64,000 nt of DNA from NCBI GenBank assembly GCA_015956445.1, contig WIUZ02000014.1, positions 682,001 through 746,000 on the forward strand. The letters are read 5' to 3'. The DNA comes from Thelephora terrestris (Eukaryota; Basidiomycota; Agaricomycetes; Thelephorales; Thelephoraceae). Below, one piece after another: positions 1,250 through 52,181 of the stretch. The notes under the pieces were generated by a model. That model made no database searches. It was not told the DNA's origin and saw only the letters and a program-made list of their open reading frames with translations. Position numbers and translations under genes: made by a program. Every line of letters starts with the position of its first letter. The stretch's first letter is position 1.

Positions 1250-3211
1250 ATGATCTTTCCTGTTGCCTCTGATGGCCCTCGCGAAGTTCAGTCTGACCTG
1301 AGTCCGATTGTCTCTCTTTGGCGAGGTCTCGCTTCAATGGATCGCCAATCCCCAGAGTTCCTTCCCTTGCTTTCTTCGCTTACCGTCGGAGACTACAAGT
1401 CCCTGACAATCAAGCTCCAACACTCAGATGCCAGGGATATACTTACCATCATGGACGAGGTAGGCCTGGCGTTTTCTGCAAAGGCAATAACTCACGTTGC
1501 ATGCGTCCTACAGGTCCTGAAAAAGATCCCGAGCGAGTATGAACGTGATACCCTCCACACTATGTGGAAGCTTGCGTATCGCTCGGGGCAGGTTCCTGCC
1601 CGTTACCAAGTCGACCGTCACTCCCTGAGTAGGGAGGCGGACGTGATTGCAGGTGGCACTTTTGCGGAAGTTCGAAGGGGAAGGTTAGGTGAAAAGGCGG
1701 TGGCCATCAGGACCCTGAGGACTGACCATAACACCAACGGCGATAAGTATCAAAAGGTTCGTGTTTTGCCCAGCTAGCTGTCCAGTATGTATTAACAGAT
1801 CGTTCACCCACACCTAGCACTTTTGCAAAGAGTGCATCATTTGGATGAATGTTTCTCATCCCAATCTCTTGCAGCTCATCGCCGTCGATATCGATTCTCA
1901 GACAGGCCAGTGTTCGATGATTTCGGAATTGATGGTGAATGGAAACATCAGGGACTATATCCGCCACAAGTCAGCAAATAGACACCGACTGGTAAGACAC
2001 CTCTTCCAGCTATACGACTACTGTTGACTCTACTTTCTGCACAGTTAGAGGATGTCGCTGCAGGTTTATGTTACCTCCACGAACACGATATCGTCCACGG
2101 GGATTTGAAGGGGGTACGTCCGTCAGCACCAGCGGTATTCCGCGTCGTCACACTCTCCCCAGAACAACATCTTGATCACCAACGATACGCCTCCCCGGGC
2201 CTGTCTGGCCGACTTTGGGCTTTCAACATTCGCCCCTAGTACGCAGGGAGTGACTACAGACACCACTGGAGGGACGCTCCTCTACATGGCCCCGGAGTTG
2301 ATAGCTCCAACATTGTTCGGTAGTTCGAGCGCCCGACCGACGAAGCCTGCGGATATCTACGCTTTGGGGATGGTGATCCTGGAAGTGCTCACCGGCGCCC
2401 AGCCATTTTCTGAGAAGGGGTGGGTAATCTCGGAGGCCGCATGTCACGTAGTGAGCGGGGAACGACCGGCAAAACCTGGTAATGCAGAACAAATCGGGTT
2501 TGGAGGTGGGACTTGGGAATTAGTTGAAGAATGTTGGTTGGAAGCAGCGAAACGGCCAAATATCGAGCAAATACGCGCACACTTAATTCGTATCGCCGCG
2601 TCCTCGACAGTTGTTGGTCCAACACCTGAGGTAGCTCGCAGTACGGACACCCCGGAGATCGATGCCTTCAGTGAGTTCTTTATGCTCCTATTTTACAACG
2701 ACCCTCACATTAGTGCGGAAGGTGAAATGTTTCCATTCCATTTCGCAACAATCACAGCTCAAAATGAGGTGCATTGCTCGGAAAATCCAATCATCGACCA
2801 AATTACCGGTGCCGTAATGGCCGACACAGTAAGCCCGACTACAGCGGTCGGCACAACCAGCATCTTGGCGGCCGGAGCTTTGAGCCCCTTCATTTCAGTT
2901 TCAAGCAAGAGCAGCAAAGGCCCAAGCCGCACAGATGGTAGTTTTGGCTCTTGTCTGGGGTGTTTCATCACTCACCTCCTGAAACTCTAGTCAAACCGCC
3001 AACGTCATCATCCAAGTTTTCGGCCACCGTGGTAACCTCTCAACGCCTGACCATAACCAAGGACCTTCTGATTGATCCCGAGAATGCGCTAAGCCCCACT
3101 ATCCCTATGCCACTACTTTTCGCAAAGAAGACGGCGAAATCTGAACACTCCGGATGGGACGGATTTTTCAACAAGCGCAAGCCAAAGGGCGCAATGGACC
3201 ATCATGCTTAA
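1250..3211 (+). CDS. TKL-like protein kinase K1
   Basis: A predicted cytosolic Ser/Thr or Tyr kinase of the fungal TKL-like group, six exons, 563 residues. Introns fall at about 1460-1513, 1757-1817, 1992-2044, 2114-2162 and 2938-2990, and the exon sum is a multiple of three. About 145 helical N-terminal residues precede the kinase domain. Visible motifs are a Gly-rich loop GGTFAEV, an alpha-C helix before SHPNLLQL, HGDLKGNN, ADFGLST and YMAPELI. The tail is Ser/Thr-rich and ends in a basic patch. The beta-3 lysine of VAIK is Arg (VAIRTL), so activity is doubtful, although HGD and DFG are intact. The first intron is 54 nt and keeps frame, but K2 and K3 have an intron at the same place. K1 is closest in form to K2 at 16.6 kb. 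The substrate is unknown. Confidence 0.85.
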
Positions 3212-11787: not shown

Positions 11788-12734
11788 GTCTCTGTTTTTA
11801 CCTCTCACAAACATGGTCCAAGCTTTTCTTTTCTCATGCGGACGGACACTTTCGGAACCCATATGACGACGTTCACTTGTAACATCCCCCCCATATTATC
11901 CTGCATGTGGGCTTATAAGTTATTCATTGCGTACACACAACCCTTCTGCGTTGTATTTTAACTCTCTTTCGCGAAACGCAGGCAGTTTCGATCATGTTTC
12001 CGTCGGAGGTCCTAAGGTTTACTCAACAGCGGAGTGCGGAGCAATGCTCTCCCCGCCAATGGTCGTGTCATCAAAGTTTATTCACCCTTAAGTTCCCTCC
12101 CGCCTTTCCCGCCCGGCTTTGATCACAAGTCCACTTTTTGGTGTTCGCCCTGTGAGTACACAGCTTGTGGAAGGGAAACCAGGGCTGAAAAGACTTTAAA
12201 AGCATTTATCCCCACGCGGAACCCCCGGATGTAGGTAGGCAGGTTCCCGCCAGAAATTGGAAAGAATGCTCGGGCAATACATCCGCTCTTTCTTTCTTAC
12301 GCCGATCACATCACTCTCACCTGGACTATGAGCACCTTTTGTTCCAGCTATTTCGCTGCCGGCGAACACAGTTCCATCCTCGACGCATCTTGGAGCTAAT
12401 GCCCCATGCGCGTGTCAGGACAACACCGGGGCTCCTTGCCCCAGAGGAGGCGTGCGTGGAGGCGGTGGGAGGTGACGGTGTAGGCTGGAATAAACAACCT
12501 CAAGTTCGAAGTAGTGGGGTCTCTCCGAGAAGTGGCAGGAGAGGTCATGATGGTCAGGTGGATGGAACGGCGTGGGTTCCAAACAAGCGCTGTGTCTAAA
12601 TCTGAGTCAGGCCCCGCGGAGGCTGAGTGGAGGGATTTTCAATCCAACCCTCACCAAAAAATCGCATGCCTTTGTTCAGAAACTCCCTCCTCCCGACGCC
12701 CCCGCGCCCTCTCGGGTTCACGAATGTTGTTACC
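11788..12734. other. Intergenic region
   Basis: Between the NTPase stop and the glycosyltransferase start. No frame looks coding and no repeat is seen. The last 150 bases before 12735 are CT-rich, as in many fungal promoters. Confidence 0.5.
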
Positions 12735-14599
12735 ATGAAGCCAAAGGCAAACCGGAGTATCTTCAGGACTCTGCCCACCTGGCTCTCCCTGACGATCGGC
12801 GTCTTGATTGGGATAATCGTCTCCAAGCTCGTCTTCTCATCAGTCGGTGTTTTCTCGCCTTTTTACTCTATCAGAACATTGACCTCCTTGTGAATTTTCG
12901 CATTCATTTTCGCATACAGTCACCCCGAGCATGGAATCGAAGGCCTCCAATTGGGCATCGGCCTCTCAGCACCCCTGTCGACCATCAACACAAGTTCACT
13001 ATGCCAACGATTGAACAGCGCTTTCGAGTCCTCGAGCTCTTGACCACCCTAGCACCACACTACACCAAAGAGTGCACTCGACACGCAAACCCTCTCTACG
13101 CTGAACAAGCACGAGAACGCTACGCCACCCTCATCGGCCACAATGAACCTTTGCAGTCATCATGGATCACCAACCTCGGTCTAGGCCTCGGAGGTTTGGA
13201 CGGGGACCAGATGCCTAGCCCATCGATGCATACCCCGGACGACCACAAGTACTTTTTCGCTATCAACTTGTACAACTCGTTCGACGTCATACCCGACCTG
13301 TTTCCTACTCTCTTCAAAGTCTCGTCCATTCTTGGTTTCCAGAACGTCTACGTGTCAATCTACGAGAACGGATCAGACGATCAGACGAAAGCCCTCCTGC
13401 GCATATTCGACGCTCTCTGTCGGTCCGTCGGACTGAAGGTTCACATTCGTACCTCGATGCGAACCAGGAGCGATTTCGCTCATCGTATCGAGTATCTGGC
13501 TGAAGTGAGAAACGCCGCTTTCGTACCTCTTCATGAACTCCGAGATTCTCACGGAGAACATTTCGACACGATCGTCTTCATGAACGATATCTTGCCTTGT
13601 GTGGACGACTTGCTGGAGCTGATTTACCAGAGCCGGTTGAACAATGCCGGGATTACCTGTGCGGCGGACTACATGTATCACGAAGAACTGGTGTGAACGT
13701 TCGTTCGTTTTCAGGTCGGCTCGAGCGCTCACCAATGACTACCCTTTACAGGGACATCCAGTGTTCTACGATAACTGGGTCGCTCGCGACATCAACGGCA
13801 CTGCCCTAGAAAACGCTCCATTCGAAGTCATATTCCATCACCCGTCCTCGAACGAACGGTGGCAACGCCACTTGCCCGTCCAGGTTCAATCGTGTTGGAA
13901 CGGCATCGCGATCCTGGACCCAATGCCATTCTATACCCCTCCATCGGTCAAGTTCAGGATGGCGAATATATTGGAAAACGAGTGCTCCGCGTCAGAGTGC
14001 AGTTTGATCTGTAACGATTATTGGCAGGCCGGGTTTGGGAGGATCATGATGGTGCCTAGGGTCAAGTTGGCTTATGATAATGTAAGTGGGAGGGCCCGAC
14101 GTCAGTGCTTGTTTACGGAGAGAGTTGACTTTGTTCTACTACAGAGAGTTTTCCCGATCATTCATCCGTCGAGGAGGAACTTGACGGCCATCCGGGGGTA
14201 TCTGAGGCTGGGTGGATTGCCGGATAACCCTAGGACGGATCCTCAGGACCGGGCGTGGTTTGGTCCTCATGATAGGTTGTTTATTGAAGAGGAGAGTGAA
14301 CCTGTTGAGTTTGTTCCTGGACCTGACTATGGTGAGTTTCTTCCTGGTTTCTGCCTTCTTGCATCCTTGGGATTCCCCCGATTGTTCTATATATATATCC
14401 TTGCGTTGCGTGTTGCGAAGGCTTGTCATGAAACAATGAATGTTGATCGCTCCTTTCTTTAGTGTGGTGTTGGGGGTGGGACGGGGCTGGTGTATTGGAT
14501 GGACCGGACGTGGATCCTATCTGGGAGAAGATGCCGAATAGGACTGCCTCGCCGGATGCTATCCAAGTTCGACACCGTAGGGATTTGAAGCAGTATTGA
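12735..14599 (+). CDS. CAP59-family glycosyltransferase (GT69)
   Basis: A type II Golgi membrane glycosyltransferase of the CAP59/CMT1 family (GT69, alpha-1,3-mannosyltransferase type). Members build capsule or cell-wall mannans in basidiomycetes. The start at 12735 gives a short basic cytosolic tail, then a single membrane anchor (WLSLTIGVLIGIIVSKLVF). The lumenal domain shows YFFAINLYNSFDVIPDLFP, VYVSIYENGSDDQT, FDTIVFMNDILPC (an acidic, possibly metal-binding site), CAADYMYH, FYDNWVARDING, VQSCWNGIAILDP and CSLICNDYW. Introns are at about 13691-13751, 14082-14144 and 14332-14462, and the C-terminus is RRDLKQY. The junction of the first exon (near 12840-12930) is not settled. The acceptor substrate cannot be told from sequence. 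Confidence 0.88.
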
Positions 14600-16590: not shown

Positions 16591-18848
16591 ATGATTACAA
16601 TCCAAAATCGAAAGCCTGCAACGCGCTCTCTCTCTTGCTCTTGCTGCCATGGATCCATCCCACTCGATATCCAAAGTACGAAACGCCAGACTAAACAGAA
16701 GTCAGTCTTGAAGGTTCTCTGCCTAATTCTCCTCTGAACTCTGCGTGCTCTAGGTTTCTCCAACGATGTGCTACCGGGGTTGCATACCCTTTCACCACTC
16801 GACCCCAAGTCAGAAGAGTTCCTGGAATTGTTCCGATCATTCCTGTCGAAGGACGAACGCGCGACTATCCTCGCTTTATCTAGAGAAGACGCGAGGGTTT
16901 TCATTGAAATCATCGACAGGGTACGTTTCTCTCGGATATTCTCCCGCGATTGTTCGGTGATATTGTCCCTGAACACCAAGGCACTCCGAGAAGCGCGACT
17001 GGATATTGAACTTGAGAAAATTGCTTTCAGTGTCCTCAAGGAGCTATGTGGCGAGATAGGACACCTTCCAGACTCCTACCTCTTATCCTGCAGGCTCGAA
17101 CCCGCTGTGATAGCTCTCGCCCCTGGCCGCTTCTCCCATATTCAGAAGGGATCTTTTGAAGGGAAGGACGTTGCTGTGAAGTCGTTGAGAATATTGAAAT
17201 TTGACGGCGAAATCCAAGTCCGCAAGGTTGGACAACAAGCCACAGCTTTTTGTCAAAGTTCGCTCACGCACTGTGTAGCATTTCTGCGAAGAGATCACTG
17301 TGTGGAGGAATTTGTCCCATCCCAACGTCCTTAACCTCATTGGTGTCTCTGACACCATTGAAGAAGGACGGCTCTCTGTGGTCTACGAATGGATGGCCAA
17401 CGGCAACATCATGGAGTACGTCCGTACCAACGCTGGCAACCATCTGAAGCTGGTAGGCTATAACCGCGTTACCCCTTATCACCACTTACTTAATACCTTA
17501 CAGCTTGAGGATGCCGTTGAAGGACTGAAGTACCTTCACCAAACCGGCATTGTACATGGAAACCTGAAAGGTGTAAGTATCCTCGCCCGGATCCCTCGAA
17601 CACCTCTCATGTGATTGTTCAGGCCAATATCCTGATAACGAATACCGAGCCCATCTCAGCATGCCTGGCCGACTTCGGATTCATGACCATCGTGCTCAAC
17701 CAAATCGTTGGGACAAGGGTGGCAAAGCCTGAAGTGGATGAATGGACGACTCCTTTCGTGGCACCAGAGCGCCTTCTATTGTCCGAGTTCGTACTGGAGA
17801 ATGGTGCACCTACGATGGAAGGTGATATATACGCAATGGCCATGACGACATACCAGGTACTCGCCACACGATGATTAACCTACACGCAGATTAATCCTTC
17901 TGTATAGGTGCTCACTGGAACACTCCCATTCGGCGAACAGACCGGACCTGAGGTGGTAGCTCAGGTTCTGGAGGGAGCGAGACCCTCCAAGCCCATGAAT
18001 GCACTGGATCTTGGCCTCTCTGACGTGGTTTGGAAGCTGCTCGAAGACTGCTGGCAAAAAGAACCTCATCTCCGGCCGCCGGTTGAAGATTTCTTGAGCC
18101 GTGTCAAGTCAGCTGCCTCGGTCTGCGGTACACTCTCCCCGGTTGGAGGATTTCCCCAACGGAATGAGGATCCCGATTCTGACTTGATGAAATTTGGTGC
18201 GTTACTTTACTACTCGCACGGCAATGTCAAATTAATCAGGCGCTGTAGATCAACTGTTCCTCGGAATGACCCACGGTGAGCTTTCCCCTCCCATCACACA
18301 CCTGCCAAAGGTTAATGCTGTGTATCGTAGATGAAAGTGAAGGTATCGGTAGCCATTGTAGGCACATCCCTTTGTCCCATCTCAAGCGCCTTCACAAACT
18401 CCCCACAGCCATAGCACGCCTTCCGAGCCACGACTCAGACACCTCCGCGTCTAATTCATTATTCTCCGAAACCTCAGAGGTTTCGAAAACTGAGTCTACC
18501 TTCACTGAACCCCTCCCAGCCTTTCTTTTTAATCCAGCGCCGGATCACGCCCGTGAGTTGAGACAACTGCACCGCACTGCCGTCACGCCTTGCTGACGGA
18601 TCAACCCAGCCCCTCCCCAAGACCTCGCCAACCTGATTTCCCGACCCTCCACGCCCATCTTTGTAACTCACACTCTGCCGCGGCCTTTCAGCGACAACAC
18701 GGGCCCCTACCAAGATGATACGTTCGCGGCGTCGAGCGGTAGTGTTCGAACACTATTCCCAGATGCCGCGCCTCATCAACGGGATCAACCCCGTTCCGAG
18801 ATCGGTCAGCATCCGTTTGGTGTGATGTGGCAGCGAGCCGTGTATTGA
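16591..18848 (+). CDS. TKL-like kinase K2, probable pseudokinase
   Basis: A second kinase of the K1 type, ten exons, 583 residues, exon sum a multiple of three. The first intron (about 16676-16753) only fits frame from the ATG at 16591. A 60-nt in-frame intron at 16921-16980 matches the intron position in K1 and K3. The N-terminal helical region contains ERATILALSREDARVFIEII. The kinase domain shows a weak Gly loop (APGRFSHIQKG), the beta-3 lysine VAVKSL, EEITVWRNLSHPNVLNLIG, HGNLKGANILI, ADFGFMT and FVAPERL. The catalytic Asp of HRD is Asn (HGN), so phosphotransfer is unlikely. A long Ser/Pro-rich tail follows. An alternative 31-nt intron at the stop would extend the protein to 19170. Confidence 0.83.
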
Positions 18849-19942: not shown

Positions 19943-22892
19943 ATGGTTCTAACCTCTCTGGCATCTCAAGAAGGCATGAACGCCGCACTATCCTTGGAGG
20001 GCGAGGATGCGTTGACCCTTGTGAATATCCTGGATCAGGTAAGCAGACCGGCGGGTGTCTGGTTACGCTATCTGATTATGCCTACACAGGCTTTTGAGGC
20101 ACCGGGCATGTCCCTTGATCTCCGGAGAAGGAGTGTTCGCATCCTCCGGAGAGTTTGTGGTCTACAGACAATTCTCCCACGTTCTTGCATCCTCTCCGAA
20201 AACATCTCGAAGGGAGGAGACATTGCGTGGGCTTCTGGTAGATTCACAGATGTATGGAAAGGTCGCAACAACGGAAATCTTGTGTGCATAAAGGCGTTTA
20301 AAACGTATGGCGCCAATCTGACAAGGATCAAGAAGGTTTGCACACATTGCTTTTACGTTGGATGTGCACCTTTGACAGCTCGTGGCAGCGCCTGTTCCCA
20401 GAACTCGTGATTTGGCGACACTGTCCCATCCCAATGTCCTGCCCGTCTTAGGTATCTCCCCCAAGCTGTTTCAGTTATGCATGGTCTCGGAATGGATGAT
20501 CGACGGGAATATCCTCGAGTTTACGTCGAAGCATTCCGAGGTCAACCGCCTCCGTCTCGTACGCCTAACTTTCCTTCCTTCTTCAATCCTCAAATTTTGA
20601 CACGCCTCTTAAGCTCGGGGAAGCAGCAAACGGGTTGCAGTATCTACATTTGATGGACATCTTTTACAGTGACCTCAAGCCCGTACGTGCCACAAGCAGT
20701 TTCCCTCAACTCCCTCTGATGGTTTCACACAGAACAACATTGTCATCGACAGCAACTTCCGCGCTCGCCTCACTGATTATGGGTTCAGTGCGATCATCTC
20801 AGATGTGAACACTGTCAACCCTGGAAGCAAGACACATTACCCCGTTGGAACCGTTCGATACATGGCACCGGAACTGCTGGACCCCTCCGGCTGGAATCTG
20901 GATAACAGCAACCCAACGAAGAAGAGTGACGTCTACGCGTTCGGAATGGTTGCGTACCAAGTAAGCATCACGTGTAGGATCTTGGATGTGGCAATTAACG
21001 GCAACGTGTAGGTGACCACGGGACTGCAACCATTCGCTGGGGCAAAGGACGGTGTGATCATCTACGGCGTCATTACTGGAGAGCGACCGAGCCGACCTCC
21101 GGGTGCCAACGACTGGCTCTCGGATGACGTCTGGAACTTTATTTCCCGGTGCTGGTCTCCATCGCGGGATGGCCGACCCGACGTAGAATTCGCGATAAAC
21201 GCACTGAACGATGCGGCTGATGTAGTCGAGACCAGACGCGTAAAATTGTACGTGGAAAATGGCCAGGGTGAAAAGGCCGCTCGCCGTGGCGGTAAGTGGG
21301 TCGGCCAAATAGGCATAGCCAAGACGAGGACAATTCCCCAAGGGTTAGTGGCCCCATTATCGGTGACAACGATAACCAGGCCCTTGTCCAGGTCCTTCCA
21401 CCAGCACCGAAAGACTGGTTTTCACGAATTACAGACGAGATATTGGACCTCACCGATCAAGTTGCGTCGGTCGCTCTTTTCGGGCCCATTGGCGTTGGAA
21501 AGTCTTTTGTGGCCCGTACCGTCCTCGACCACGGCCGAACCAAAGCCAAGTTTGGTGAAAACCGTTACTTTATGTGCTTCGATGACTTCGCGAACTCGCC
21601 GGACGTGTTCATGGAGCACCTATCCGATGCCATCCACATTGATGCAACGCAGCTCCGGTCACGCCTCCAGTCCTCCCCCTCACTCATATTTTTGCTCGAT
21701 GGCGTGGATTCCGCCCTTGACCCGCCGACTCCTGAGGCCGAGGAGATGTACGCAATGATAGAGGAATTTGGTAGCTTCGAACACATCTGCCTGGTTACTA
21801 CCAGCAGGATGTATCCAGACATTCATGGTTTCCATCGGATCGAAGTACCGAGGCCCCCCGAGGATGGCGCACGAGACATCTTCTATACACTCTGCAACTT
21901 GGGAAGATCCCCTGCAATGGACACCCTCGTTGCGACGCTGGACTTCCATTCGTTTTCTATCGAGCTCCTCGCCAGGGTCATATGCGAAAACAATTGGGAC
22001 GAACAAATGCTGTTGGAGGCGTGGGATGACCAGACAGGCGTGCTGAAAACGGACTATTACCAAAGGCTCAAGGACACGATCGAGCCGGTGCTTCGCTCTC
22101 CGAGGATTCAAGGGCTAGGGACGACGGCTCGGGACGTGCTCGAGGCAATTGCATCCTTCCAATCTGGGCTTGAAGAACGCCAATTGGAGGGGATCTTTCG
22201 TGGAACATGCGGAATACGAGAGGTGGTTGATATACTTTGCAGATTCTCCCTTGTTGATCGCCGAAACGGAGTGCTAAAGATGCTTTTGCCACTCCAGTTC
22301 TACTTCCTGAAGTCCATGATCGTGCTAGCAGAAACGGAGGAAGTTATAAGATGGGGCCCTGATTGTATGGCTGCACAAGGTGGTATGTGCTCGTTGAATC
22401 CATTTCACGGTTGGCGTGTGACAATTCTTTGAAGTGCTCCCTTACTCCACTCGGGGACCGCCAGAGTACCTGTTGTTATCCTCCTCCCCCGAACACCCTA
22501 CCATCCGCCGCCCAAGAAGGGAATGGATCAGAAGACTGCCGCAAGTCGTGAAGAAAAGTAAATACTATGTTCCCGATTCTTCATTGACTGTTCCTAACCT
22601 CAAGCTTAATTCTCCGATAGGGCTCCTTGCTCTGTTCGGCCGCCTGATAGCAATCAAGATGCAAGAAGGTCCTGCGAGTATCGTGCCTACCGCCCTACGA
22701 GAAAAGCCTACGGAATCTCTGCCAACAGCCTCCCGAGAAGACCGCGCAGATATCCCGCATGCCGCCGCGCAAGATGATCATGGAAATACATCGCCCGGCG
22801 CCCTACAAGAGGATCCCGGAAATACGCCGCTTACTGCTCCTCAGCGACAGATCTCTCTCACACCAGTCGCGTACGAGGTGGACTGGTGGTGA
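19943..22892 (+). CDS. Kinase K3 fused to nSTAND NTPase (NLR-like)
   Basis: A predicted signalling protein with a TKL-like kinase domain, then an nSTAND/NACHT-like NTPase, then a repeat tail. From the ATG at 19943 nine exons give 850 residues with a correct sum; the start is uncertain. Kinase motifs are ASGRFTDVWKG, VCIKAF, LSHPNVLPVLGIS, YSDLKPNNIVI, DYG for DFG and RYMAPELL. The alpha-C glutamate is not evident. The NTPase shows Walker A FGPIGVGKSF, Walker B LIFLLDGVDSALDP, a TTSR sensor and the helical pattern of fungal nSTAND proteins (LDFHSFSIELLARV, LGTTARDVLEAIASF, CRFSLVDRRNGVLKML). The two halves are joined by a 32-nt intron (21292-21323). The NTPase frame has no ATG of its own before Walker A, which supports one fused gene. 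Kinase-headed STAND proteins are known among fungal NLRs. The trigger and output are unknown. Confidence 0.8.
22686..22856 (+). repeat. Degenerate 11-13-residue repeats in K3 tail
   Basis: The last exon of K3 encodes about five imperfect units of roughly 36 nt: PTALREKPTESL, PTASREDRADI, PHAAAQDDHGNTS, PGALQEDPGNTP and the start of a fifth. They are Ala/Pro/Asp-rich and not WD40, TPR or ankyrin repeats. Confidence 0.65.
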
Positions 22893-23232
22893 GATATCGC
22901 GCATCGTTCGGTTGACGCAAAATTGACCCGCAATCCGACGCTCGCTTCGTAATGATTTCCATTGGCTACCTCCCCCCTCAGAACCACATAACCGCGCCCT
23001 TGGTGTAGCAATTCATTTGACTGGGGTACTCACCCTGTAGTCCTCGTATAGTTGCTGCGAACCGTTAAATGATGGCACAACTCTCCATAAGAGCTATAGG
23101 GAAACGCGTAGCTTACATACAATTGCAGATTTGTACATACAAACCACGAGTATAGCACAATCGCTGCCCCTCCACGCCCCAGAACATGACACCTGTCTGC
23201 ACTGATATCTGCTCAGATGCTACCAAGCGGGG
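22893..23232. other. Intergenic, convergent 3' ends
   Basis: This lies between the stops of K3 and the DUF1308 gene. No gene or repeat is seen. Confidence 0.5.
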
Positions 23233-49535: not shown

Positions 49536-51282
49536 TTAGCTTGAGCAATGGTTGATTGGCGCAGAGGCGGGTATGTACAGCTGGGGTTGTCCACCAACTG
49601 CAGTTGCCTTGAGTGTACCAGTCTCATCCACAGCAACTACGTTGCACGAGAAGACTTCGAGAAGTTCCGTGCCCGGAGTCCATTCGGTGCCCTGGACGTT
49701 CCAGGATGCGGTGCCGTTCGATCCGACATTGGTGAATAAAGCCAACAACGGGTGCTTATAGACGGCCATGGTAGTTGCGGTGACCCCAAGGAATGTCATA
49801 GGCGTAAGGAGATATCCTGGACAGGTAGCAATGGCGGCTTTACGTGCAGCGTTAAGCGCCTTGACGTGGTCGACGAGTTCCTTCCCTTCCTCAACATACC
49901 CAGAGAGCCATAATCTAATCCAGGAAGTTAAAACCTGAATGAGACTGCGCATGAATTGAACCTACGCTTCACGGTTGTACGGGTCATTACCGCCGGTGTA
50001 ACCTTGTTCTTGACCTGAAAATATGTCAATGGCCACTCTCCGAGGGCAACTGGTCATCCTGATGACATACCGTAATAGAGGATAGGGATACCATCATGGA
50101 TGAAAGGGAAAGTAATGACATTCTTAATCCTCTGAAGTGAATGAGCACAAGCCTGTCCGCGATTGCCACAGGCACTTACCGCGGTATCGCTGGTCAACGA
50201 GGGGAACCTTGGCTGGTCATGATTCTCTGAGAACGCGCCAGATCCAAACAACCCGGTCTTGTACGTGAGTTGGGCTTTGTGGACAACCTCGGCGAGAGCG
50301 CTCAAGTTTCCGGTTGACGTTTGGAACGCAGGGAACAGTTGGTACCATGTGGGGTAATCCAACACGCCGTCAATAACGTCTGCGAGAAGGGTCGATCCCG
50401 AATGAATGATGGCAGAGGTAACAGGATACTGACACGTGTAATCCTTCACGTAGGCTGTATCGCCGTGATACACCTCGCCGACAGTGTAGACACCAGAGAG
50501 AGTGGAGAACGCTGGCCAAAAGTCTTTCCTGACGTGCTTCACGGTGTCGATTCGAAGACCATCGATATCGTATTTCTGGGTCAAGTGTCGAATCCAACTG
50601 TAGTAGGTCTTGACAACAAAAGGGTTCTCCGTATTAGCGTCCGCCAGGCCAACCTTATTATCACCTAGCCAACATTGTTCGACATCCGTCTGGTTGTTGT
50701 AATCAGTTATTATGCAATAAGGATGGAAATGGCTGGGCTTGTCAAAGGGGCGGAAAGAAGCGTAGGGGGTCGATGAGTTGACGGGGGGTCCAAAATGATT
50801 GACCACTATATCGACCATGAGGTACATATCTCGCTCGTGCAAGGCATTGGAAAGCGCAAGCAAATCTTCTTCAGAGCCAAAGTGTGGGTTGAGCGAGTAG
50901 ATGTCCTGCGCCCAATACCCATGGAAAGCCTCCCCGTAGACGGTAACGCCTTCGATGTTGGCAACGATGGGCGAAATCCAGATGGCGTCAAAACCTAGAT
51001 CTTGGATATAGTCGAGTTTTTCGATAATGCCTCGATAAGAGCCGCCACAGTATTTGCGATAATCGGTGATGCACTCAGTGGTGCCTCCACCCTCTAGGGA
51101 AAACCTGTCGGTCAAGAGCTGCGGTAATTCATCATTCAGCATAGGCGATAGCTCGGCGTCACAATGGCAACCAGTCGCGTACTTACCTGGTATATCGATC
51201 GGCTTTGCCACTCCCAGACTGAAGCCGCGAGGGAACTCGCCGCAAAACACGTAGCCAGCGCGAGGACGCGTGAGACAGACAT
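49536..51282 (-). CDS. Secreted alpha-amylase, GH13
   Basis: An extracellular endo-acting starch hydrolase. Five exons give 507 residues with a correct sum, and introns are about 68, 48, 56 and 51 nt. The signal peptide is clear: MSVSRVLALATCFAASSLAA, cleaved before SVWEWQSRSIYQ. The fungal amylase fold follows: LLTDRFSLEGG, DYRKYCGGSYRGIIEKLDYI, YWAQDIYSLNPHFG, MVDIVVNHFG (region I), GLRIDTVKHV with the nucleophile Asp (region II), YTVGEVYHG with the acid/base Glu (region III) and FSENHDQPRF with the stabiliser Asp (region IV). The C-terminal beta domain is of the DUF1966 kind and no starch-binding module is present. All catalytic residues are in place. The length equals typical fungal Taka-amylase relatives. 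Confidence 0.96.
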
Positions 51283-52181
51283 GAGAGGGTAAAAGAAAAC
51301 GAGTTGGTTCTCCCTTGGGCTTATGTACTATTGATCGGCAGAACAGTGACAGGAGCGCGCATGATCTTGAAACGGATGACGTTCTCTCCCCGTCCATTCA
51401 AACACCGACGAAATTGGTCTTCTTGCGTACTCAGAAACAGCCTCGCCCCGTTCTTGGAGGATTTGAGGGTATGGGAACGCAGACCACGCAAGCCGCGCTT
51501 TTGACCCCCTCTCACCAGTCATAAGTAAAGCTGGGAAGAGATGCCCACGATACTTTTGCTCATCTGACACCAGGCATTTCAATGGATGTCCAAGTTCGCT
51601 GATGCAGAGATGAGAACCCCCAGCATCCGTGGTGGGGCTTCCGTCAGAGTGGACCCTGGGCGGGAATTGAAGCGGGGTTGTCCTACATCAGTCTTAGTAT
51701 GCCCTGGGAGGAATGGAAGTCATGGTTCTCTCAAGCGTCATGGAACTCTCGGCGGGGGTAGTTTGGTGTCGACGCCGGTGGGATTGGAGGGTATAGACAC
51801 AGCGAGGCCAGTGTCAACTAGGCCAGTATGAGGAGGAAAAATCCGGCGGTGGAGATCAATGAGGTACCTTGGTTGCTTTGCCACTTAGTCTCATCTCATG
51901 TCACTGCCATTTCGACGATTTTGAGGAAAATTGCCCAGGAGGGTGATCCGAAAGATATGTATTTAAACCTTGTATCCGTTGCCTGTATGCTCCACAATGA
52001 ATAAATGGTGTGCGACGCGCTGAGATACCCGGTTTCGGCCGCGTCTAATGGATCCAGACGGCGATTGAGATTGAGATGTTTGTTTGGATCAAAAGCTATT
52101 GCCAAACAAAGGCTTCCAGTTTACTGTTTAGGCAACCCTCACCGATCCTCCCGAACACTGTGTTGAACACCGGAAACCACC
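51283..52181. promoter_or_regulatory. Divergent promoter region amylase / RCF1
   Basis: Nearly 900 bp between divergent starts. A plus-strand frame at 51586-51831 is open but has no recognisable motif. Regulation of the amylase by sugar would act here, but I cannot name a site. Confidence 0.4.

What the first reader, a model, noticed from the sequence alone, without database searches (positions are those of the whole stretch)
19943..22892. Kinase fused to an nSTAND NTPase: an NLR-like protein
The exons join into one 850-residue frame: TKL-like kinase, then Walker A FGPIGVGKSF and Walker B LIFLLDGVDS in an nSTAND/NACHT-like unit, then an odd repeat tail. Kinase-headed STAND proteins are a known but little-studied class of fungal NLRs, tied to heterokaryon incompatibility and possibly immunity. 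Two kinases of the same type sit next to it.
Basis: partly seen in the sequence, partly recalled or inferred. Interest (0 to 1): 0.78.

Follow-up and report, generated by a model that had tools for sequence, protein, structure and literature searches.

The report
Immune-type switch grafted onto fungal kinase
A fungal gene copy in which a protein kinase lost its usual tail and gained a molecular switch of the kind found in immune receptors; the same switch sits on several unrelated proteins in this genome, and this particular copy may be damaged.

Summary
A kinase followed by a STAND-type NTPase is really there, but the single 850-residue frame is not secure. Module-free kinase copies on the same contig align to the head and then run into an SHD1 domain; in the window that homology stops at about 21289 and a 1.5-kb module (NTPase plus a tail of 12-residue repeats) follows. 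Relatives of the module occupy 17 places, window included, in one supported clade, behind six head types: three kinds of TKL kinase, degraded kinases, a VAP/MSP protein and a CBM21 protein (one unbroken frame). Most heads have a module-free paralog on the same contig. TPR repeats, present in 7 of 7 wider relatives checked, were not found. The kinase-headed class is known; a dispersed module on copies of ordinary proteins resembles integrated-decoy NLRs, but at the N-terminus and without a repeat sensor. The window copy has a one-base frame break in the alphaC region relative to three paralogs and an irregular junction; RNA must show whether it makes the fusion. Nothing found here bears on heterokaryon incompatibility.

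The parts
19943..21291 (+). Kinase head (K1 type) in six exons: 19943-20038, 20090-20335, 20379-20558 (as read; relatives point to a start at 20389), 20614-20682, 20733-20960, 21012-21291 (end depends on the junction intron)
   Evidence: Pfam Pkinase 5.6e-30; 81% DNA identity over 1270 bp to C6:658k and 76% over 1338 bp to C6:842k
20379..20425 (+). Damaged alphaC segment: one base fewer than three module-free paralogs near 20419; an acceptor 10 bases upstream restores the frame but changes the residues
   Evidence: alignments
21289..21343 (+). Breakpoint and junction: kinase homology stops at 21289; about 50 bp without a match found; module frame from about 21343. Candidate introns include 21248-21312, 21292-21404, 21296-21342, 21296-21348
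   Evidence: homology end; intron list; junctions of other copies
21343..22379 (+). nSTAND-type NTPase exon: Walker A GPIGVGKS, Walker B IFLLDGVDS, TTSR, HSFSIELL (GLPL-like by reading), then KMLLPLQFYF
   Evidence: alignment A1 of 25 members, G50 G52 K53 invariant; 16 other places of the close set
22435..22892 (+). Tail in two exons (22435-22557, 22621-22892): basic RREWIRRLPQVVKK, LLALFGR, four 12-residue repeats of type xQEDPxNxxPxA, end VAYEVDWW
   Evidence: matches in 14 of the 16 other module loci, not L023 or L024; genome search
17143..18129 (+). Neighbouring TKL kinase (K2 type), no module; HGNLKG where active kinases have Asp
   Evidence: Pfam Pkinase 2.5e-31
1818..2618 (+). Further kinase in the window, 33% identical to K2
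   Evidence: Pfam Pkinase 2.1e-14 on frame 2109-2987

Best explanation
The window gene is a chimera: a local copy of a TKL kinase-SHD1 gene whose 3' end was replaced by a dispersed nSTAND-plus-repeat-tail module (shown by paralog comparison). Inferred: where such fusions are expressed, the NTPase is the nucleotide switch and oligomerisation unit of an NLR-like receptor, and the head, a copy of an ordinary cell protein (kinase, VAP, glycogen/PP1-type subunit), is the bait whose disturbance by a parasite or non-self factor trips the switch; the basic helix and 12-residue repeats would carry output or assembly. In this strain the window copy itself is probably damaged or only partly functional. 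I hold the chimera part at about 0.9 and the bait mechanism at about 0.4.
For: Chimera: homology to the module-free copy C6:842k ends at 21289; C6:658k continues in one open exon from kinase into SHD1 (SHD1 4e-9 for 658k and 1.1e-7 for 842k); 5 of the 6 SHD1 hits in the genome (one of the five below cut-off) lie beside K1-type kinases on C6, none at the window copy. Module reuse: 17 loci in a clade supported 99/97 with six head types. Fusion in one exon: kinase with NTPase in L018, L027, L030; CBM21 with NTPase in L012, 948 codons (CBM21 8.9e-21). L012 breakpoint: homology to its CBM21 paralog ends at 1346, homology to L018's module starts at 1340. VAP: L024 homology to the standalone C5:523k gene ends where that gene's hydrophobic C-terminal segment begins. 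Module-free paralogs on the same contig for the K1, K2, L025, CBM21 and MSP heads. Module constrained: window against four copies dN 0.15-0.18, dS 0.68-0.76. Bait rather than enzyme: of 9 K3 heads, the six in which my pattern found the catalytic loop read H-x-DLGG (Lys lost), and 8 of 9 lack the DFG Asp, L018 keeping it; MSP and CBM21 are not known output domains (recalled).
Against: No RNA, protein, population or phenotype data. In the C23 sister set 6 of 6 heads read HGDLKG, and DFG was found in 4, which suits an enzymatic output as well. L013 and L025 heads keep their catalytic Asp and Lys. K3 heads are on C1 and C12, so not every head type stayed on one contig. The window copy has frame damage. 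Extra nonsynonymous change in its head is significant against one paralog (34 syn:42 nonsyn vs 48:21, p=0.004) but not the other (26:36 vs 26:26, p=0.45). Only one genome could be examined.
Confidence: 0.5

Rival explanations
1. Classical effector-head NLR: the kinase is the output enzyme, released when the nSTAND unit oligomerises; head changes diversify outputs.
For: Kinase is a listed fungal NLR N-terminal domain (PMC4986451 passages). In the C23 sister set 6 of 6 heads read HGDLKG and 4 of 6 showed DFG.
Against: MSP and CBM21 heads are not kinases; 8 of 9 K3 heads lack the DFG Asp; the window head has YSD in place of HSD and a broken alphaC.
Confidence: 0.25
2. The window copy is a pseudogene or a non-functional by-product of local duplication and recombination (compatible with the chimera part above).
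For: One-base frame break against three paralogs; the junction acceptor CATCAG of K3 copies reads TATCGG here (by reading); no branch motif in any printed junction intron. Other copies look broken: L014 (interrupted), L022 (truncated), L025 (frame change), and the NTPase match changes frame or stops early in L020 and L023 (not examined further).
Against: The NTPase frame (378 codons) and the tail are open; pairwise dN/dS about 0.2; frame-restoring splice options exist.
Confidence: 0.45
3. Two adjacent genes, kinase and NTPase, wrongly read as one.
For: No regular junction intron in the window.
Against: The NTPase frame has its first Met at codon 93, after Walker A at codon 66, so it cannot start alone with an ATG; three relatives join kinase and NTPase in one exon and L012 joins CBM21 and NTPase; most K3 copies share a junction intron with donor GTCAGT, or GTAAGC in L014 (by reading).
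Confidence: 0.06
4. The frame break near 20419 is an assembly error and the gene is intact.
For: Single-base difference in one assembly.
Against: No homopolymer at the site (by reading); the junction is irregular as well, and the head shows extra nonsynonymous change against one paralog.
Confidence: 0.2

Closest known systems
Fungal NLRs with N-terminal PKinase (PMC4986451 and PMC9815663, passages)
   Same: Protein kinase N-terminal to a STAND NTPase
   Different: No TPR array found; short repeat tail; the same NTPase module also carries MSP and CBM21 heads
Putative integrated-decoy NLRs of Sordariales (PMC12258605, passages)
   Same: A domain copied from a separate cellular protein is joined to an NLR; kinases are prominent candidates
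   Different: There the kinase is C-terminal in nine of 12, in complete tripartite NLRs; here it is N-terminal and a repeat sensor was not found
Plant NLRs with integrated domains (PMC9528084, search listing only)
   Same: Copies of possible pathogen targets fused to an NLR
   Different: Plant NLR-IDs keep NB-ARC and LRR (recalled)
nSTAND-TPR genes of the same genome (e.g. L033)
   Same: Homologous NTPase, about 39% identical, nSTAND1 over cut-off
   Different: Open frame ends in TPRs and starts close to the NTPase
TKL kinase-SHD1 genes on contig C6
   Same: Closest relatives of the head, 76-81% DNA identity
   Different: Carry SHD1, no NTPase match

Membership tests
Fungal NLR (tripartite STAND receptor) | STAND-type P-loop NTPase with Walker A and B | tested here: met
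   G50, G52, K53 and D119 invariant in 25 of 25; profile hits NLRP1, NRC1/2, RPP13-like protein 4, with ClpC and Rix7 at similar E-values; window alone below Pfam cut-offs
Fungal NLR (tripartite STAND receptor) | N-terminal effector-type domain | tested here: met
   Pkinase 5.6e-30; the join in the window is not shown by RNA
Fungal NLR (tripartite STAND receptor) | C-terminal superstructure-forming repeats | tested here: not met
   A TPR query hits 7 of 7 TPR-type loci and 0 of 23 loci L009-L031, window included; no repeat family in the Pfam scan of the model. Only the 1.5 kb held downstream of each match was searched, and only for TPR
Fungal NLR (tripartite STAND receptor) | Ligand-triggered oligomerisation | not testable with these tools
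TKL protein kinase, active | Kinase domain over family cut-off | tested here: met
   PF00069 105.1 bits against 31.7
TKL protein kinase, active | Intact alphaC and catalytic motifs | tested here: not met
   alphaC read in another frame than in paralogs; YSDLKPNN and DYG, where paralogs 658k and 842k have HSDLKPTN and DYG
Integrated-decoy NLR | Fused domain is a copy of a separate cellular gene | tested here: met
Integrated-decoy NLR | Otherwise complete NLR architecture | tested here: not met
   no TPR array found
Integrated-decoy NLR | Parent protein is a pathogen or non-self target | not testable with these tools
   no interaction or infection data

The most novel reading that the evidence does not exclude
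A dispersed NTPase-plus-tail module in this fungus repeatedly replaces the 3' ends of local copies of ordinary genes (SHD1 kinases, the VAP gene, a CBM21 gene), making a family of head-swapped receptors in which the captured protein itself is the sensor and no repeat array is needed.
Probability: 0.35. Interest if true: 0.8.

Novelty: new variant of a known kind. Interest (0 to 1): 0.6.

Why it matters
What activates fungal NLRs is named as a crucial open question (PMC10197012, passages). Each head here names a candidate guarded protein, and most have a module-free paralog in the same genome, so the bait idea can be tested directly. It would also extend integrated decoys to N-terminal, repeat-free receptors.

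Tried and rejected
Tandem repeats at DNA level in 21200-23200: none, although a 12-residue period is visible in the protein. For the window NTPase NCBIfam and PADLOC gave nothing. A count of unique changes in the module across ten copies (window 8 syn:17 nonsyn; others from 20:11 to 2:8) was not informative, because saturated sites are left out and the nonsynonymous share is inflated. Papers: a search on SHD1 with kinase and basidiomycete (3 listed) and one on mushroom, NACHT, NLR, protein kinase domain, architecture (1 listed) showed no title or abstract start describing this architecture; some searches were the other searches. Only open-licence papers are held, and I read passages of five papers, none whole. 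Other fungal genomes could not be searched. Rejected: two separate genes; a plain NLR with TPRs. My first junction guess was out of frame and was replaced.

Full report
Setting. The window is bases 682001-746000 of contig C6 in a 40.6-Mb, 60-contig genome.

The observation. Pfam finds Pkinase at 5.6e-30; the NTPase part hits NACHT, AAA_16, AAA_22, NPHP3_N and AAA, all below cut-off. In an alignment of 25 relatives the Walker A glycines and lysine, D119 and T153-S154 are invariant; 11 of 25 members hit nSTAND1 and 18 of 25 NACHT at E<=0.01. The family profile reaches NLR family protein 1 (2e-6), NLRP1, NRC1/NRC2 and RPP13-like protein 4 in the PDB; ClpC, Rix7, VCP-like and McrB proteins also appear, some as strongly as the plant NLRs. 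I read this as a divergent STAND NTPase.

A family in the genome. The NTPase query has 117 listed matches, a lower bound. I held sequence for 30 of these places. Seventeen form a close set: the window and 16 others at 52-76% identity, L025 counted once although it matches in two pieces. Six lie in a cluster at C23:121-164 kb (40-44%). The other 93 matches lie at 35-41%; I examined seven. All seven carry TPRs downstream; in the five that I read, the open frame starts 14-60 residues before the match; in the 1.5 kb upstream there is no kinase match at E<=10 except one at E 9.4 in L035. The other 86 were not examined. The tree puts the TPR types on one side (100/100) and, on the other, the C23 set (100/99) and the close set (99/97).

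Heads of the close set (17): K1 kinase (window); K2 kinase (L013); another TKL kinase (L025, Pkinase 3.2e-25); K3 kinase-like heads in nine (L010, L011, L015-L020, L023); an interrupted K3 head in L014, whose other K3 exons lie about 3.5 kb further upstream; CBM21 in L012 (8.9e-21); MSP/VAP in L024 (3.5e-17) and L021 (Pfam only 0.014, below cut-off, but 66.8% DNA identity over 1115 bp to the VAP gene); none found for truncated L022. Six of six C23 loci have kinase heads. In L018, L027 and L030 the kinase C-lobe and the NTPase are in one unbroken exon, so the fusion does not hang on splice guesses there.

The graft. Window kinase DNA aligns to module-free copies C6:658k (81%, 1270 bp, to 21221) and C6:842k (76%, 1338 bp, ending at window 21289). 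At 658k the same exon runs on in frame into SHD1 (SHD1 4e-9). Six SHD1 hits exist in the genome: a strong one on C3 and five on C6 near K1 kinases, one of them below cut-off; none is at the window copy. K1-type kinases occur at seven places on C6, of which only the window one has a listed module match; K2-type at five, of which only C6:554k has one. L025's head has kin at C23:343k (78%) and 385k. The CBM21 head has a 74%-identical copy (592-codon frame) 23 kb away (CBM21 region dN 0.164, dS 0.494); its homology ends at L012 base 1346, and homology to L018's module begins at 1340. The VAP head has a standalone copy about 120 kb away that ends in a hydrophobic segment (by reading); L024 homology stops there, that of L021 earlier. 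K3-like kinases without a listed module match lie at C1:440k and C12:3197k. The module is spread over C1, C5, C6, C12, C17 and C23; head relatives mostly stay on one contig, K3 being on both C1 and C12. How it moves is unknown; homology of window module DNA to other copies ends close to its stop codon (22899 at the furthest).

The tail. Basic RRxWIRRLPQIVKK, LLALFGR, then 12-residue repeats of varying number (four in the window), ending VAY(D/E)VDW in many copies (by reading). It matched 14 of the 16 other close loci, not L023 or L024. In the genome search 16 of 19 tail matches lie at module loci; C1:598k, C1:313k and C6:54k do not.

State of the window copy. Against 658k, 842k and 883k the window lacks one base near 20419, and the frame survives only with a non-shared acceptor. 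The copy at 883k is itself broken (stops). Window-specific changes in the head are 34 synonymous to 42 nonsynonymous, against 48:21 for 658k (Fisher p=0.004); in the four-copy comparison the window has 26:36, 658k 30:14 and 842k 26:26 (window against 842k p=0.45, 658k against 842k p=0.10). The module shows pairwise dN/dS near 0.2 against four copies, which averages over both lineages and cannot date any decay. The junction intron of most K3 copies (donor GTCAGT, or GTAAGC in L014, acceptor CATCAG, by reading; L018 has none) has no counterpart in the window.

Mechanism. Shown: chimeric gene structure, module reuse, head truncation, and one-exon fusions in relatives. Inferred: NTPase as switch, head as bait. 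The kinase-as-effector rival remains open, above all for the C23 set. Known from print (passages): PKinase heads in fungal NLRs (PMC4986451, PMC9815663; kinases also in PMC10197012), nearly identical NOD domains with different N-termini (PMC4986451), and candidate kinase decoys, mostly C-terminal, in Sordariales (PMC12258605). I therefore call this a new variant of a known kind. After checking against the calls I lowered only the two-genes rival (0.08 to 0.06), because one search shows one-exon kinase-NTPase fusions in relatives.

Noticed in passing
contig C6 658-664k, 699-702k, 867-872k, 883-890k: K1 and K2 kinases recur as neighbours along C6; the window pair (17143-18129 and 19943-21291) is one of them.
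   Followed up: partly
L026-L031 (C23:121-164 kb): Cluster of six kinase-headed nSTAND genes with HGDLKG loops; DFG seen in four of six.
   Followed up: partly
C1:527-532k (L014): Most of a K3-type head and its module are separated by about 3.5 kb, as if by an insertion.
   Followed up: no
window 17143-18129: K2 kinase reads HGNLKG, Asp replaced by Asn, while its module-bearing relative L013 keeps HGDLKG.
   Followed up: no
L016, module start: Extra tandem copies of a LPPAV-type unit just before the NTPase.
   Followed up: no
window 12551-14459 (+) and 50057-51397 (-): CAP59-type mannosyltransferase (5.7e-38) and alpha-amylase (7.7e-50).
   Followed up: no
whole genome: 93 further listed nSTAND matches at 35-41% identity, many with open frames near 700 codons; the seven examined all carry TPRs.
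   Followed up: partly
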